52,652 nt of DNA from Alphaproteobacteria bacterium. GTDB lineage: Bacteria > Pseudomonadota > Alphaproteobacteria > Rhizobiales > Beijerinckiaceae. The notes beneath the pieces are model-generated. The model saw only the letters and a list, made by a program, of their open reading frames with translations, was not told where the DNA came from and searched no databases. The stretch lies in contig VGCJ01000006.1 of assembly GCA_016870035.1 (NCBI GenBank), positions 1-52,652 on the forward strand, written 5' to 3'. This document shows, one piece after another, positions 18,321-48,272 of the stretch. Both the position numbers and the translations under genes were made by a program. How positions within the stretch are numbered: position 1 is the first letter of the stretch; every line of letters begins with the position of its first letter.

Positions 18321-18336
18321 TGGCATACCCCTTGCT
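18321..18336 (+). promoter_or_regulatory. Sigma-54 promoter for the flhA-flhF-flhG-fliA operon
   Basis: TGGCATACCCCTTGCT matches the sigma-54 -24/-12 form at all defined positions. It lies about 100 bases upstream of the chosen flhA start and only 29 bases from the divergent site for flgP. Confidence 0.8.
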
Positions 18337-22712: not shown

Positions 22713-23426
22713 ATGAGTCTCAAAGCCTATCCAACGCAAGCTTTAAGCGTTCAGGACATCAATGAACGCGTACGCCTTCATATGCCGCTTGCGCGGAAAA
22801 TCGCGTGGCAAATTCATGGTCGCGTCCGCGATCTTCTCGACATTGACGATCTCATTCAAATCGGAATGACAGCGCTTGTTGAAGCGGCCCAACGATTTCA
22901 AGATACAGGTGAAGCCACTTTCGGCGCTTACGCATCAATCCGAGTGCGCGGAGCATTAATCGATCACGTGAGAAATAATCTCAATTTAACGCGCACCGCC
23001 GTTCAGCGTCGCGACCGGATCGCTCAGGCGCGTCGCGGTCTTCTCGACGAGGGTAAAGATCCTGATAATCAAAGCTTGATCGCAGAAAAAATCGGGATCG
23101 GCATTTCTGAATTACAAGTCTGGTACGGCCAAGTTGCAAAGTATGCCCACAAGTCACTCGACGAAATCTATGACGATCACTCGGTATGGTTTGCTGACGA
23201 GAGACCAACGCCAGAACACGCTCTTCTTACCGGCGAATTGCGCGAGAGGCTCGCTGCAAATCTCAAAAAGCTCAATGAGCGCACGGCAATGGTTTTGCAG
23301 CTTTATTATGTTGAAGAGATGAATCTCGAAGAAATTGCCGAGACCTTGTCCATCTCCATTGGTCGCGTATCACAAATCAAAAAGGCTGCGATCAGTCAAT
23401 TGCGTGAATGGATGGGCGAAGGCTAA
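22713..23426 (+). CDS. fliA: Flagellar sigma factor FliA (sigma-28)
   Basis: Alternative sigma factor for late flagellar genes. The 237-aa product has region 2 (PLARKIAWQI...DLLDIDDLIQIGMTALVEAA), a region 2.4 segment ASIRVRGALIDHVR, region 3, and a C-terminal region 4 helix-turn-helix (EEMNLEEIAETLSISIGRVS). Length is that of FliA rather than a housekeeping sigma. Its likely targets in this window are the shared TAAA-N15-ACCGTCTT sites before flagellin 1 and fliD. No FlgM anti-sigma factor was recognised here. Confidence 0.94.
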   Translation: MSLKAYPTQALSVQDINERVRLHMPLARKIAWQIHGRVRDLLDIDDLIQIGMTALVEAAQRFQDTGEATFGAYASIRVRGALIDHVRNNLNLTRTAVQRRDRIAQARRGLLDEGKDPDNQSLIAEKIGIGISELQVWYGQVAKYAHKSLDEIYDDHSVWFADERPTPEHALLTGELRERLAANLKKLNERTAMVLQLYYVEEMNLEEIAETLSISIGRVSQIKKAAISQLREWMGEG

Positions 23427-25787: not shown

Positions 25788-25828
25788 GCATTTTAACCGA
25801 GCGTTAACCATAGCTCGCAGAATAAAAC

Positions 25829-42945: not shown

Positions 42946-42972
42946 TAAAGAATTCCAAAGTCCGACCGTCTT
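42946..42972 (+). promoter_or_regulatory. Probable sigma-28 promoter for flagellin 1
   Basis: TAAA (42946-42949), 15 bases, then ACCGTCTT (42965-42972). The same two boxes at the same spacing occur before fliD. The leader to the ATG would be about 125 bases. Confidence 0.55.
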
Positions 42973-42996
42973 CTTGATCGACTAGCCTTCCTGAAC

Positions 42997-43030
42997 GGGG
43001 GCGTCGCCCCCTAATCCCTCAGGGGCTTTT
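42997..43030 (+). promoter_or_regulatory. Two overlapping hairpins in the flagellin 1 leader
   Basis: GGGGGC-gtc-GCCCCC (42997-43011) is a perfect 6-bp stem with a 3-base loop. Its 3' arm GCCCC (43006-43010) can pair instead with GGGGC at 43022-43026, and that second pairing is followed by TTTT (43027-43030). The two structures exclude each other. Confidence 0.4.
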
Positions 43031-43105
43031 GAAACTGAAACGATCATATTGATCCGTTCGAGCCAAAAGCTCTCGCGGGGTCATTTACGGAAACGGAGAT
43101 ATCCA

Positions 43106-44599
43106 ATGACGGTTATCAATTCCAACATCAAAGCTTTGAAGGCGCAAGCGAGCGGTGAAAATAATTCCCGCAGACTTGATAACGCCATGGAGCGTCTTGC
43201 GACGGGTGCACGCATCAACAGCGCAAAAGATGACGCAGCGGGTCTCGGCATTGCCACGAAGATGACCGCTCAAATCAATGGTTTGAACCAAGCCATTCGT
43301 AACGCCAATGATGGCTTGTCAATGGTCAACACAATTGAAGCGTCGCTGCAGCAATCTTCAACCGTCCTTCAACGTATTCGTGAATTGGCTGTGCAATCGG
43401 CAAACGATTCAAACAGTGTTGAAGACCGCCAATTCCTGCAAAGCGAAATTGTTCAAATGCAAGCCGAGCTTGATCGTATTGCTAATCAGAGCCGCTATAA
43501 TGGCATGAAGGTCCTGGATGGCACGTTCACCAACAAGCAGGTCCAGCTTGGTGCCAATGGATATGAAACGTTAAGCTTCAACCTCGACGCGGCTTCATCG
43601 GCTGATGTTGGCGCGCATCAAAAACGTTTAGGTACAATGGGAGCTGTTGCTGCCGACACAAACCTTACTTCTGCAGCAAATCCAGTCACGGCAGGCACCA
43701 TGACTGTTTCGGGGTATCTTGGTACAGAAACAGTCACAATTGTTGCTGATGTTTCCGCAAGAACGGCGGCCATTGCGGTAAACAACAAATCTTCACTTAC
43801 GGGCGTTGCAACTCAGGCTGTAACTAAAGCTAAGATAAGCAGCGTAGCGGCAGGTACCGTCACCTTTGACGTAACCGGCAAAAATTCCACTGCGGTGACT
43901 GTCAGCGCCACACTGACATCCACCTCTGATCTTACGTCCCTGTCGAATGCCTTTAATCTCGTCTCCGCCCAAACCGGAATAACGTCCGAATTAGGATCCG
44001 ATAAGACTTTTATTATTCTGACCAATGCTGAAGGCTACGATATTGGTCTTGAGGGCTTTACGCACACTACAAACCAGTCGACGGTTACAATTCAGGGTAT
44101 GACCGGCTCAGGTACCACAGTAGTCGGTACGGCAAGAACGGTAACAAGCACTGCGGCTCTTGATACAACACGTGTCGTCGGCGACTTGTTGTTCTCTTCT
44201 TCAAAGGCCTTCACTTTGAAAGACTCAGCGGGTACGATCGGCACGGATGCTTTTGCTGGTACTTCGGCTCAATCCTCAGCCTTGGCGGCAGTGTCAGGCG
44301 TATCTGTCGCTACAGCATCCGGCGCGGCACTTGCCATTGATATCGTTGATGGCGCGATTGCTAAAGTCTCGAATATGAGAGCCGATCTTGGTGCCATTGC
44401 TTCGCGACTAGAAAAAACCGTTGACGCGCTCACCGCAGCATCGACCAACGTCTCCGCCGCAAGGTCGCGTATTCAAGACGCAGACTACTCGGTCGAGACG
44501 ACCAATTTGAGCAAAGCGCAAATCATTGCTCAGGCTTCGACGGCGATGCTCGCGCAGGCGAACCAGCAGGCTTCAATCGTTCTTTCACTGTTGAAGTAA
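43106..44599 (+). CDS. fliC: Flagellin 1
   Basis: Filament subunit, 497 aa. I start it at ATG 43106 with ggaga upstream; the in-frame upstream ATG at 43049 would add a non-flagellin leader. The N-terminal D0/D1 (MTVINSNIKALKAQ, LDNAMERLATGARINSAKDD, AAGLGIATKMTAQINGLNQA) and C-terminal D1/D0 (ADLGAIASRLEKTVDALTAA, ending QQASIVLSLLK) are complete. The middle 180-400 is Thr/Ser-rich and variable. A probable sigma-28 promoter and a strong terminator bracket it. A close paralogue follows at 44872. The symbol fliC is generic. Confidence 0.95.
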   Translation: MTVINSNIKALKAQASGENNSRRLDNAMERLATGARINSAKDDAAGLGIATKMTAQINGLNQAIRNANDGLSMVNTIEASLQQSSTVLQRIRELAVQSANDSNSVEDRQFLQSEIVQMQAELDRIANQSRYNGMKVLDGTFTNKQVQLGANGYETLSFNLDAASSADVGAHQKRLGTMGAVAADTNLTSAANPVTAGTMTVSGYLGTETVTIVADVSARTAAIAVNNKSSLTGVATQAVTKAKISSVAAGTVTFDVTGKNSTAVTVSATLTSTSDLTSLSNAFNLVSAQTGITSELGSDKTFIILTNAEGYDIGLEGFTHTTNQSTVTIQGMTGSGTTVVGTARTVTSTAALDTTRVVGDLLFSSSKAFTLKDSAGTIGTDAFAGTSAQSSALAAVSGVSVATASGAALAIDIVDGAIAKVSNMRADLGAIASRLEKTVDALTAASTNVSAARSRIQDADYSVETTNLSKAQIIAQASTAMLAQANQQASIVLSLLK

Positions 44600-44624
44600 C
44601 AGGGCTGGGTTTAACTCCACCGGA

Positions 44625-44655
44625 CCCCCGGACATTTTGTCCGGGGGCTTTTTTT
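44625..44655 (+). terminator. Rho-independent terminator after flagellin 1
   Basis: Perfect 9-bp stem CCCCCGGAC (44625-44633) / GTCCGGGGG (44639-44647) with a 5-base loop, followed by seven T's. The strongest terminator in the window; it separates the two flagellin transcripts. Confidence 0.92.
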
Positions 44656-44823
44656 GTACTGTGAACAAAACAGGAACACATTTTTTACCCATATAGATTT
44701 GCTCGTTCCGTGATTGAAATGAAGGACGTTAAAGACCCTTTTTTGAGCGGCTCAATCGAGCACAATAGTCCTCGTCCCTGTGCATAACCATCAGTAAACT
44801 ATTGATTTTAATAAAAAAATTTC

Positions 44824-44839
44824 TGGCATGGAAAATGCA
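44824..44839 (+). promoter_or_regulatory. Sigma-54 promoter for flagellin 2
   Basis: TGGCATGGAAAATGCA keeps the GG and GC cores at the right spacing; the base before TGC is A in place of T. It lies 33 bases before the ATG. Confidence 0.7.
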
Positions 44840-44871
44840 ACTTTCCGGTCAACTCTAACCGGAGCTCGACC

Positions 44872-46386
44872 ATGACCGTAATTAACTCAAACATCAGTGC
44901 GTTGAAGGCTCAGTCGAGCCTGACGAAAAACGCAATAAAGCTCGATACTGCGATGGAGCGCCTCTCCACCGGTTATCGGATCAATTCGGCCAAGGATGAT
45001 GCGGCCGGTCTTGCCATCACCAACCGCATGACCTCGCAAATCCAAGGCCTCAATCAAGCCGTGCGCAATGCCAATGACGGCATTGCCATGATTGCAACCA
45101 TTGAAGGCGCGCTTGCCCAGACAACCAATGTCATGCAGCGTATGCGTGAACTTGCGGTTCAGGCCGCCAACGATTCAAACAGCACCGAAGACCGTCAGTA
45201 TCTGCATGCGGAAATGGTTCAGCTCAATAACGAGCTTGACCGTATTTCCTCGCAGGCACGCTTTAACGGCATTCGCGTTCTTGATGGCACTTTCACCAAT
45301 AAACAGCTCCAAGTCGGCGCTAATGGCAGTGAAACCGTTGCCTTCTCCGTCGACAGTGCAGCCGCCGCCGATATTGGTGTCCACCAAAAGCGTGTTGGCA
45401 CGATTGGTGTTGTCAACACCGAAACCACGTCAACAGCAACCGCATCCGTTCCGGCAAGTCCAATTTCGGGCGGGACACTCACAATTTCGGGCTTCTTGGG
45501 AACAACCGGTGTAACGATCGACCGTCTCGATTCTGCCCGACTTGTAGCGGCTGCAGTCAACGATGCATTTTCTAACACCGGCGTGGCGGCCAAAGCCGTA
45601 ACCAAGGCGAAACTGTCAAGTCTGTCAGCTGCAGGGACGATTACTTTTTCCGTCACAGGCAAAAATTCGACAGCAATTACGGTCAGTACGACAATTAGCA
45701 GTACATCTGATCTTACTTCACTTGCCGCTGCTTTTAATACTTTTTCGTCACAAACAGGGATTACGGCAGAATTATCAACCGACAAACTCAATGTTATCCT
45801 GACAAGTGGCGATGGATACGATATTCAACTCGCGGACTACACGAATAATGGAAACGGGACAATAAATGTAATTGGCCTTGCTGGTAATGGTGAAGCAATT
45901 TCAGCTGCCGATACGGCAATTACGTTAACGGCAACCACGACCCTTGATTCGGCCAGAATTATCGGTGATGTTCTCTTCGAATCGTCGAAAGAGTTTACAC
46001 TTAAAGATAATGCTGGAACGGCTGCTCAAACAAATTTTGTTGGCCAAACCGCTCAACCATCGTCGCTAGCCTCAATGTCGACTGTAAATATTCAGACGCA
46101 AAGTGGTGCCGGAACTGCAATATCAATCATCGATGGAGCATTGACACGTATCTCGTCTATGCGTGCTGATCTTGGTGCAATTTCTTCACGTCTCGAAAAA
46201 ACGGTTGATGCGTTGACCTCATCATCCGTGAATACTGCCGCTGCGCGTTCCCGTATCCTTGATACGGACTACGCCGCCGAAACCAGCGCCTTGGCAAAAT
46301 CACAGATTATTGCTCAGGCCTCAACGGCAATGCTTGCTCAGGCTAACCAACAGCCTCAACAAGTTCTCCAGCTGCTTAAGCAGTAA
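44872..46386 (+). CDS. Flagellin 2
   Basis: Second filament subunit, 504 aa. N-terminus MTVINSNISALKAQSSLTKN and LDTAMERLSTGYRINSAKDD; C-terminus ADLGAISSRLEKTVDALTSS, ending QQPQQVLQLLKQ. The ends are near those of flagellin 1 and the middle part, although more diverged, keeps shared blocks (STSDLTSL, VVGDLLF/IIGDVLF, FTLKD), so the pair arose by duplication. It has a sigma-54-type site instead of the sigma-28-type one of flagellin 1. Confidence 0.95.
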   Translation: MTVINSNISALKAQSSLTKNAIKLDTAMERLSTGYRINSAKDDAAGLAITNRMTSQIQGLNQAVRNANDGIAMIATIEGALAQTTNVMQRMRELAVQAANDSNSTEDRQYLHAEMVQLNNELDRISSQARFNGIRVLDGTFTNKQLQVGANGSETVAFSVDSAAAADIGVHQKRVGTIGVVNTETTSTATASVPASPISGGTLTISGFLGTTGVTIDRLDSARLVAAAVNDAFSNTGVAAKAVTKAKLSSLSAAGTITFSVTGKNSTAITVSTTISSTSDLTSLAAAFNTFSSQTGITAELSTDKLNVILTSGDGYDIQLADYTNNGNGTINVIGLAGNGEAISAADTAITLTATTTLDSARIIGDVLFESSKEFTLKDNAGTAAQTNFVGQTAQPSSLASMSTVNIQTQSGAGTAISIIDGALTRISSMRADLGAISSRLEKTVDALTSSSVNTAAARSRILDTDYAAETSALAKSQIIAQASTAMLAQANQQPQQVLQLLKQ

Positions 46387-46410
46387 GCGAAAGCTCCGGT
46401 GGAGAAGGCT

Positions 46411-46431
46411 GCCCCGGTCGGTGACCGGGGC
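46411..46431 (+). terminator. GC-rich hairpin after flagellin 2
   Basis: Perfect 9-bp stem GCCCCGGTC (46411-46419) / GACCGGGGC (46423-46431) with a GGT loop, but no T-run follows. It may be a weak terminator or protect the 3' end of the mRNA. Confidence 0.55.
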
Positions 46432-46440
46432 GGTTCGGCC

Positions 46441-46467
46441 TAAAACGGCTATATTTCTAACCGTCTT
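46441..46467 (+). promoter_or_regulatory. Probable sigma-28 promoter for fliD
   Basis: TAAA (46441-46444), 15 bases, ACCGTCTT (46460-46467): the same boxes and spacing as before flagellin 1. It lies 33 bases upstream of the fliD GTG. Confidence 0.55.
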
Positions 46468-46500: not shown

Positions 46501-48135
46501 GTGGTCGATTTGATTTCCGCTCTCGGCGCTGGATCTGGAATCGATATTAAAAAGCTTGCGAAAAATCTTTCGGACGCCACACATGCTTCCGAACAAAGCC
46601 AGCTTAATTCAAAAAAGAAAGCTGCCGAGGCTAGAATATCATCTGTCGGAAAAATTATGTCGACTGTTAATGATTTCACAGACGCATTGAAGTCGCTCGG
46701 CAATAGCTCAACATTCCAAAGAATTCCCACAAGCAGTGATACCACAAAAGTAAAAGTCAATTTTATTGATGGTACTATTCCACCAACTTTCAATAGCACA
46801 GTAAAAGTTGTAAAAAAGGCGATCGAAGCAAGCGTCATCATGCCTAAAATTTCGAGCCTTGAGGCGAACCTCCTTTCATCAGGCGCCACCGGAAATTTTA
46901 AGCTTGTAAATACTGACACGGGCGCAACACTGCAAGAATTCGATTTAAGTACATATAATACTCTCCCAAAATTAAGGGATGCAATAAACGCACTGACTGG
47001 ATATACGGCATCGATCATCCAAGGCGGAACTTCCACCACTCCTCACTATTATCTTTCAATTAAACGTGATTCAGGAGCCGCCAACTCATTTCAAACTCAA
47101 TTAAGTACAAGTGATTCAATGCAAAATTTTGCGGGGACGGTGGTGGCCGGAGACAGCCCTACGACGACGGCTGGTCAAGACGCTGAAATTCAAATTGATG
47201 GTATATCAATTACCTCCGCTACGAATGACTTTAAAAATATATTACCGGGTCTTCAAATAACAGCTGTGGACACGACGGGCGCTACGGATGCTTTAATTTC
47301 GTCGAAGACGGACACTGCCACTCTCAGTAATGCCATATCTACAGTGGTTGTCGGGTTCAATGCGCTTGTGAAAACGATCCAAAGCGAGACAGCATATAGT
47401 GAGGATCCAACAAAGCGGGGCGCTTTGGCTAATAATTCATCCGTGAAACAACTGTTAAATAATTTGCAAAAATTTACAACTCAGCGTATTTCTGGTTATG
47501 CAAGTACTTCGCACACGATGAGCGAGATTGGTATCTCGACTAATAAGGACGGTACAATATCTTTAAATGAGAGAACTTTTGCCAAAGTCCTGAGAGATAG
47601 TCCGTTGACGGTAGAGGCCGTGCTTGCTTCAAAACGCCAGATTTTAGATACTCGTATAAAGTTTGGCTCCGCGGGAGCCTCATTCCCACAGGGCGTTTAC
47701 GAAATCAGTAAAACAGGATCAACGACCTGGTCAATCAACGGCCAGGACGCTCAATACGCAAATGGTATTCTTAAATTTGGAAACGATAATGCTTCAAGCC
47801 TATCTCTCGTGGTATCGTCAGAATTGGGTGATAGCGGCGTTACAAGTTTTTCGACAAAACTTAATTATGCAAAAGGAATGATTGAGCGTTTTTCGGATAT
47901 GCTGACGGATGTGGCCAATACAAATTCAAGTATTCAAAAAATAACAGCCGTTGCCACGACCGAGATTACCAAAATTAATACGGGCCAATCAAATCTAAAT
48001 AATAAAATGACGGCGCTAAATAACCGGTACGTGAAGCAATTTGCTACGATGCAGACCTTCATCACTCAAGCCAATGACACAAAAAAGTCACTTACAAGTA
48101 TGATGGATGCGTGGTCAAATTCGATGAAGGGATGA
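46501..48135 (+). CDS. fliD: Flagellar filament cap protein FliD
   Basis: Cap at the filament tip that folds incoming flagellin. The 544-aa product starts at GTG 46501 with ggag upstream. It has the FliD N-terminal segment SALGAGSGIDIKKLAKNLSD, a central region with a flagellin IN-like part (TTAGQDAEIQIDGISITSAT, then NDFKNILPGLQITAVD), and a C-terminal FliD_C domain (GIERFSDMLTDVANT-like, ending in coiled-coil). fliS does not follow; the next gene is a glycosyltransferase. Confidence 0.92.
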   Translation: MVDLISALGAGSGIDIKKLAKNLSDATHASEQSQLNSKKKAAEARISSVGKIMSTVNDFTDALKSLGNSSTFQRIPTSSDTTKVKVNFIDGTIPPTFNSTVKVVKKAIEASVIMPKISSLEANLLSSGATGNFKLVNTDTGATLQEFDLSTYNTLPKLRDAINALTGYTASIIQGGTSTTPHYYLSIKRDSGAANSFQTQLSTSDSMQNFAGTVVAGDSPTTTAGQDAEIQIDGISITSATNDFKNILPGLQITAVDTTGATDALISSKTDTATLSNAISTVVVGFNALVKTIQSETAYSEDPTKRGALANNSSVKQLLNNLQKFTTQRISGYASTSHTMSEIGISTNKDGTISLNERTFAKVLRDSPLTVEAVLASKRQILDTRIKFGSAGASFPQGVYEISKTGSTTWSINGQDAQYANGILKFGNDNASSLSLVVSSELGDSGVTSFSTKLNYAKGMIERFSDMLTDVANTNSSIQKITAVATTEITKINTGQSNLNNKMTALNNRYVKQFATMQTFITQANDTKKSLTSMMDAWSNSMKG

Positions 48136-48256: not shown

Positions 48257-48272
48257 TGGCATAATATTTGCT
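48257..48272 (+). promoter_or_regulatory. Sigma-54 promoter for the glycosyltransferase gene
   Basis: TGGCATAATATTTGCT matches the sigma-54 form at all defined bases. It lies 29 bases before the ATG at 48301, and ties this gene to the flagellar regulon. Confidence 0.8.

What the first reader, a model, noticed from the sequence alone, without database searches (positions are those of the whole stretch)
42946..46467. Identical TAAA-N15-ACCGTCTT boxes before flagellin 1 and fliD: likely sigma-28 promoters
Both late genes have the same two boxes at exactly the same spacing and lack sigma-54 sites. The gene for sigma-28 (fliA) is in the cluster. The -10 box differs from the enteric GCCGATAA but keeps CCG, which would make it a lineage-specific form.
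Basis: partly seen in the sequence, partly recalled or inferred. Interest (0 to 1): 0.6.

Follow-up and report, generated by a model that had tools for sequence, protein, structure and literature searches.

The report
FliA promoters of late flagellar genes
Two matching DNA boxes in front of a flagellin gene and the filament-cap gene are very likely switches read by the flagellar sigma factor FliA, in a spelling that differs from E. coli's but resembles that of related bacteria and of Shewanella.

Summary
In detail: TAAA-N15-ACCGTCTT occurs exactly twice in the window, 133 nt before flagellin 1 and 33 nt before fliD. The sigma-28 reading is supported by sequence evidence only. Two-box matrices trained on relatives' flgM or flagellin sites rank the two sites 1 and 2 of 105,252 window positions. 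In the same draft genome the boxes also precede flgM (anti-sigma-28) and fliS on other contigs. They occur at spacing 15 before 12 of 21 relatives' flagellins and 25 of 45 flagellins at other alphaproteobacterial fliA loci; shuffled means 0.1 and 0.2. Flagellin 2 has a sigma-54 site instead. After CCG the box has T, not the enteric A. That is general in the alphaproteobacterial sites found, but not exclusive: three non-alpha genomes show it, and GCCGTTAA is a published FliA consensus in Shewanella (PMC3765264). FliA here belongs to an alphaproteobacterial branch lacking the D87-W88 pair of all 40 non-alpha FliAs compared. No site was found at motAB, and no chemoreceptor family in the genome.

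The parts
42946..42972 (+). predicted sigma-28 (FliA) promoter of flagellin 1: -35 TAAA (42946-42949), N15, -10 ACCGTCTT (42965-42972)
   Evidence: exact match; rank 1 of 105,252 window positions with two-box matrices from relatives
46441..46467 (+). predicted sigma-28 (FliA) promoter of fliD: -35 TAAA (46441-46444), N15, -10 ACCGTCTT (46460-46467)
   Evidence: exact match; rank 2 of 105,252 with the same matrices
43106..44599 (+). flagellin 1, 497 aa
   Evidence: Pfam Flagellin_N and Flagellin_C
46501..48135 (+). fliD, filament cap, 544 aa, GTG start
   Evidence: Pfam FliD_N and FliD_C
44824..44839 (+). predicted sigma-54 site of flagellin 2, TGGCATGGAAAATGCA
   Evidence: pattern, 48 nt before the start codon
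44872..46386 (+). flagellin 2, 504 aa
   Evidence: Pfam Flagellin_N and Flagellin_C
22713..23426 (+). fliA, sigma-28, 237 aa, after flhA, flhF and flhG
   Evidence: Pfam Sigma70_r2 and r4; NCBIfam FliA models are the two best hits but under their cut-offs; closest solved chains are FliA
18321..18336 (+). predicted sigma-54 site TGGCATACCCCTTGCT before flhA, perhaps driving flhA-flhF-flhG-fliA
   Evidence: pattern, 75 nt before flhA; the operon is inferred from gene order

Best explanation
The two boxes are promoters for RNA polymerase carrying FliA (sigma-28) of an alphaproteobacterial branch. Proposed working: a sigma-54 step switches on hook-basal-body genes, fliA (in flhA-flhF-flhG-fliA) and flagellin 2. 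FlgM holds FliA inactive until the hook is finished and FlgM is exported. FliA then reads TAAA-N15-NCCGTNNT-type promoters before flagellin 1, fliD, fliS and flgM itself. Shown by sequence: the boxes, their fixed spacing, their recurrence before the same late genes here and in relatives, and the presence of fliA, flgM and sigma-54 activator genes. Inferred: that FliA binds these boxes, that FlgM export is the switch, and the order of expression.
For: Exact boxes at identical spacing. Outside-trained two-box matrices rank them 1 and 2. Own genome: TAAA-N15-ACCGTTTT 53 nt before flgM on contig C69 and TAAA-N15-CCCGTCTT 28 nt before fliS on contig C129. Of the 6 genome hits, 3 are before flagellin 1, fliD and fliS, and the other 3 lie inside or opposite ORFs of at least 100 aa. 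Relatives with fliA (8 of the 13 found were sampled): TAAA-N15-NCCGT before 12 of 21 flagellins, with 1 at spacing 14 and 0 at 16; 25 of 45 flagellins at other alphaproteobacterial fliA loci, with 4 at spacing 14 and 0 at 16; shuffled means 0.1 and 0.2, largest 2. flgM: 13 of 14 loci found by Pfam in the fliA-bearing set, own genome included (two start codons re-read by me). fliS: 3 of 3 in relatives. Nine weaker flagellin-like hits, presumably of another flagellar system, have no site. Of 23 flagellins 14 have only a sigma-28-type site, 6 only a sigma-54-type site, 3 neither, none both (Fisher p 0.0008, relatedness ignored). E. coli fliD shows TAAA-N15-ACCGATAA by the same scan.
Against: No RNA or binding data. 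Raw genome counts do not exceed the reversed control. 9 of 21 relatives' flagellins lack the exact boxes. Only 2 of 7 relatives' fliD genes have a sigma-28-type site, one with TTAA, while 5 of 7 have a sigma-54-type site, one of them both. In the wider tblastn set flgM lacks a T[AT]AA-N15-NCCG site in 4 of 12 family loci and 19 of 44 other loci; the 8 with a site include the own genome and one gene counted twice, and 23 of the 25 sites in the other loci have TTAA. A matrix from other-alphaproteobacterial flagellin sites alone ranks the two window sites only 12 and 16, and 27-column matrices with the spacer included rank flagellin 1 at 1 or 17 and fliD at 143 or 533. No fitting site at motA/motB. 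Close relatives are counted separately, so counts are not independent.
Confidence: 0.93

Rival explanations
1. The boxes bind another late-flagellar regulator and are not polymerase contact sites; the fliD site is nearly an inverted repeat.
For: The fliD site reads similarly on the other strand (TAAG-N15-GCCGTTTT from 46468, minus strand).
Against: The flagellin 1 site shows no such symmetry. TAAA, the spacing and CCG equal the published sigma-28 consensus TAAAGTTT-n11-GCCGATAA (PMC2859248, passage seen), and the sites go with fliA and flgM.
Confidence: 0.03
2. The boxes are sigma-70-type promoters, alike because an upstream region was copied.
For: Short boxes; two sites only in the window.
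Against: The spacers differ in sequence. The boxes recur before flgM and fliS on other contigs and before flagellins at sphingomonad fliA loci.
Confidence: 0.02
3. Chance matches picked out by eye.
For: Genome-wide pattern counts do not exceed the reversed control.
Against: Two-box matrices from relatives rank them 1 and 2; sharp spacing peak at 15 in relatives.
Confidence: 0.02

Closest known systems
E. coli sigma-28 (FliA) promoters, consensus TAAAGTTT-n11-GCCGATAA (PMC2859248, passages seen)
   Same: TAAA, distance between the boxes, CCG, late flagellar targets (E. coli fliC and fliD scanned)
   Different: after CCG the box reads TCTT here and not ATAA
Shewanella oneidensis FliA consensus TAAAG-N14-GCCGTTAA (PMC3765264, passage seen)
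   Same: same spacing and CCGT
   Different: GCCGTTAA there, ACCGTCTT here; a gammaproteobacterium
Flagellin promoters at Sphingomonadales fliA loci, mostly TAAA-N15-GCCGTTAN (found here)
   Same: spacing, CCGT, the same side of the FliA tree, flgM often with a site
   Different: GCCGTTA there, ACCGTCTT here; sphingomonad flgM sites mostly have TTAA
Two-sigma flagellin pair of Shewanella putrefaciens (flaA FliA-independent, flaB FliA-dependent; PMC6299084, passages seen)
   Same: neighbouring flagellins, one FliA-type and one not
   Different: here inferred from sites only; order and roles untested
Rhodobacter sphaeroides fla1 system (RpoN1/FleQ/FleT early, FliA late; PMC6180460, passages seen)
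   Same: an alphaproteobacterium with sigma-54 first and FliA later
   Different: its FliA and promoter letters were not compared here

Membership tests
sigma-28 (FliA) promoter, general | -35 TAAA at the sigma-28 distance from the -10 box (TAAA-N15) | tested here: met
sigma-28 (FliA) promoter, general | lies before late flagellar genes in a genome with FliA and FlgM | tested here: met
   flagellin 1 and fliD, fliS and flgM, fliA
sigma-28 (FliA) promoter, general | transcribed by FliA holoenzyme and lost without fliA | not testable with these tools
   needs bench work
enteric form of the sigma-28 promoter | -10 octamer GCCGATAA | tested here: not met
   ACCGTCTT shares CCG only; not filed as the enteric form
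CCGT form of the sigma-28 promoter (Shewanella consensus GCCGTTAA; alphaproteobacterial sites found here) | TAAA-N15 followed by NCCGT | tested here: met
   T in 12 of 12 family flagellin sites and 25 of 26 other alphaproteobacterial counts, and in 36 of 36 flgM/fliS sites
FliA (NCBIfam TIGR02479 and NF005413) | curated score cut-off | tested here: not met
   170 vs 189.6 and 173.8 vs 201 bits, though these are the two best families; gene order, a FlgM in the genome and the tree support a divergent FliA branch
FlgM (PF04316) | curated cut-off | tested here: met
   40.9 vs 25 bits

The most novel reading that the evidence does not exclude
Alphaproteobacterial FliA is a long-separated sigma-28 whose changed region 2.4 (the D87-W88 pair replaced, usually by L-T, A-T or S-N) reads a changed -10 element, here ending TCTT, so that promoter and sigma have shifted together and would work poorly with enteric partners.
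Probability: 0.2. Interest if true: 0.6.

Novelty: new member of a known kind. Interest (0 to 1): 0.38.

Why it matters
A 2025 paper states that no flagellum-specific sigma factor is known in Alphaproteobacteria (PMC12826043, abstract and passages seen). Other held papers already name FliA-dependent late genes in Rhodobacter sphaeroides (PMC6180460, passages seen) and a putative sigma-28 in Sphingomonas wittichii and fliA in Sphingomonas sp. A1 (PMC8921679, passages seen). The sites found here add a testable promoter model for a FliA-FlgM checkpoint in these groups, and a sigma branch with an altered region 2.4 on which -10 reading can be tested.

Tried and rejected
Looked for the site near motA/motB (loci L317, L318): L317 had none, L318 one CAAA match inside an ORF. 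Chemoreceptors: none; cheA was not searched. The 43 one-mismatch genome hits were not examined one by one. A candidate at 25823, first in the sphingomonad matrix, overlaps a sigma-54-type site before flgB and was rejected as sigma-28. A conserved hit before a 113-aa protein of no Pfam family in four relatives was left open. The non-alpha and other whole-genome lines had wrong start codons for minus-strand loci and were replaced; only its E. coli lines are used. The sigma-54 pattern had a wrong gap and was replaced. The fliD count missed G010 and was redone. The idea that loss of D87-W88 explains CCGT is weakened: three non-alpha genomes (G107, G141, G212) have CCGT flagellin boxes while all 40 non-alpha FliAs aligned have D-W, and Shewanella uses GCCGTTAA.

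Literature searches: (no paper). In the listings and passages seen I found no alphaproteobacterial promoter letters for FliA, but most listed papers were not opened. For that reason I lowered novelty from 'new variant' to 'new member', interest from 0.45 to 0.38 and the novel case from 0.3 to 0.2.
Full report
WHAT IS THERE. The window is a 52.7-kb flagellar gene cluster of a draft genome (2.38 Mb, 177 contigs, 98% complete). The nearest records that carry this fliA are metagenome genomes titled Hyphomicrobiales, Rhizobiales or Beijerinckiaceae, with a few other titles. TAAA-N15-ACCGTCTT occurs exactly at 42946-42972 and 46441-46467, before flagellin 1 (start 43106) and fliD (start 46501). The spacers differ in sequence, so this is not a copied segment.

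CHANCE. Because the pattern was read off the two sites, I used training data from elsewhere. A matrix over the two boxes from ten different flgM sites of relatives, or from twelve flagellin sites of relatives, places the two sites first and second among 105,252 window positions. Less favourable: a matrix from 25 flagellin sites at other alphaproteobacterial fliA loci, which read GCCGTTA, ranks them 12 and 16, and 27-column matrices that include the spacer rank flagellin 1 at 1 or 17 and fliD at 143 or 533. Genome-wide the pattern is not over-represented: 6 hits against 6 for the reversed pattern, 5 against 4, 49 against 60 with one mismatch allowed. The information is in the positions of the hits.

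SAME GENOME, OTHER CONTIGS. One of the five own-genome hits lies 53 nt before flgM on contig C69 (FlgM 40.9 bits, cut-off 25). Two are the window sites. The other two lie just after flgM on the opposite strand and opposite an ORF on C22. Of the six hits, two are the window sites, one lies 28 nt before fliS on contig C129 (FliS 80.2 bits, cut-off 26.7), and three lie inside or opposite ORFs of at least 100 aa. So flagellin 1, fliD, fliS and flgM share the element. No fitting site was found at motA/motB, and the genome has no PF00015 chemoreceptor (7 of 14 control genomes ring).

RELATIVES. fliA was sought in 80 genomes, the own one included. Besides the own genome, 13 have a match at E 1e-38 or better: G001, G002, G004, G005, G006, G008, G009, G010, G011, G015, G023, G039 (a fragment) and G040. 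Flagellin regions were scanned in 8 of these 13 (G001, G002, G008, G009, G010, G015, G023, G039): 12 of 21 flagellins have TAAA-N15-NCCGT within 300 nt, with 1 at spacing 14 and 0 at 16. Of 80 fliA loci from named contigs (some are the same genomes), 31 contain flagellins, 30 of them with sphingomonad titles; 25 of their 45 flagellins have the site, with 4 at spacing 14 and 0 at 16. Dinucleotide shuffles give means of 0.1 and 0.2, largest 2. flgM has a site in 13 of 14 loci found by Pfam in the fliA-bearing set, own genome included; G039 lacks it and no FlgM was found in G001 (two start codons re-read by me). The wider tblastn set (E up to 0.01) gives 8 of 12 family loci, among them the own genome, G003 and one gene counted twice, and 25 of 44 others, 23 of those 25 with TTAA; two more loci had too little upstream DNA. 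fliS has it in 3 of 3. Nine weaker flagellin-like hits, presumably of another flagellar system, have none.

TWO SIGMA FACTORS. Flagellin 2 has TGGCATGGAAAATGCA 48 nt before its start and no sigma-28-type site. Sigma-54-type matches also lie before flhA, fliK, a flgF-like gene, flgB and an unknown gene at 48268, though the pattern has 38 window matches in all. The genome has genes with a sigma-54 activator domain, one beside fliS. In relatives fliD has a sigma-54-type site in 5 of 7 and a sigma-28-type site in 2 of 7, one genome with both and one with neither, so fliD seems to have moved between the two controls. Shewanella putrefaciens is a tested case of neighbouring flagellins of which one needs FliA and one does not (PMC6299084, passages seen).

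THE -10 BOX. The published E. coli consensus is TAAAGTTT-n11-GCCGATAA (PMC2859248, passages seen); E. coli fliD reads TAAA-N15-ACCGATAA by the same scan. In the alphaproteobacterial sites T follows CCG in 12 of 12 and 25 of 26 flagellin counts (the one A is a second site in a region that also has a T site) and in 36 of 36 flgM/fliS sites (pattern not requiring T). This is not exclusive. Among 25 non-alpha genomes whose flagellin loci were scanned, 9 show an exact TAAA-N15-NCCG site; the next letter is A in five, T in three (G107, G141, G212) and only C in one. A published Shewanella FliA consensus is TAAAG-N14-GCCGTTAA, the same spacing with CCGT (PMC3765264, passage seen). What remains unusual here is the TCTT ending.

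THE SIGMA FACTOR. FliA of the window scores below the curated FliA cut-offs although FliA models are its best. A tree of 128 FliA proteins separates 40 non-alpha from 88 alphaproteobacterial ones with support 100/100 (midpoint root, several long branches). At E. coli positions 87-88, 40 of 40 non-alpha proteins have D-W and none of 98 alphaproteobacterial rows does (one further row is a fragment; rows include near-copies); D81, R84 and R91 are kept in all of them; positions 225-226 in region 4.2 are K-K in 93 of 99 alphaproteobacterial rows and in none of the 40 others. A joint change of sigma and promoter is possible, but CCGT boxes in genomes with D-W FliA speak against a simple rule.

CONCLUSION. 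The sites are, with high likelihood, FliA promoters of late genes in a sigma-54/FliA/FlgM cascade. All steps beyond sequence (binding, FlgM export, timing) are inferred.

Noticed in passing
genome G000, whole: No PF00015 chemoreceptor in a 98% complete draft genome that has a flagellar cluster: possibly a swimmer without chemotaxis.
   Followed up: no
L345 2361-2387, L346 2552-2578, L347 2431-2457 (plus), L348 2409-2435 (minus): A conserved TAAA-N15-ACCGTTAT 40 nt before a 113-aa protein of no Pfam family in four relatives; could be a further FliA target.
   Followed up: partly
L349 (G003): G003 has a flgM with a TAAA-N15-CCCGTCTT site, but only weak sigma-factor matches and no clear FliA: a relic of a lost cluster or an assembly gap.
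   Followed up: no
L328-L331 at 968 and L333 (reverse complement) at 984: A second conserved TAAA-N15-GCCGTTAT about 335 nt before flgM in five relatives; a similar match is in G003.
   Followed up: no
window 48257-48272: Sigma-54-type match TGGCATAATATTTGCT overlapping the listed TTG start of the 245-aa ORF at 48268, which is therefore probably too early; the ORF matches no Pfam family.
   Followed up: no
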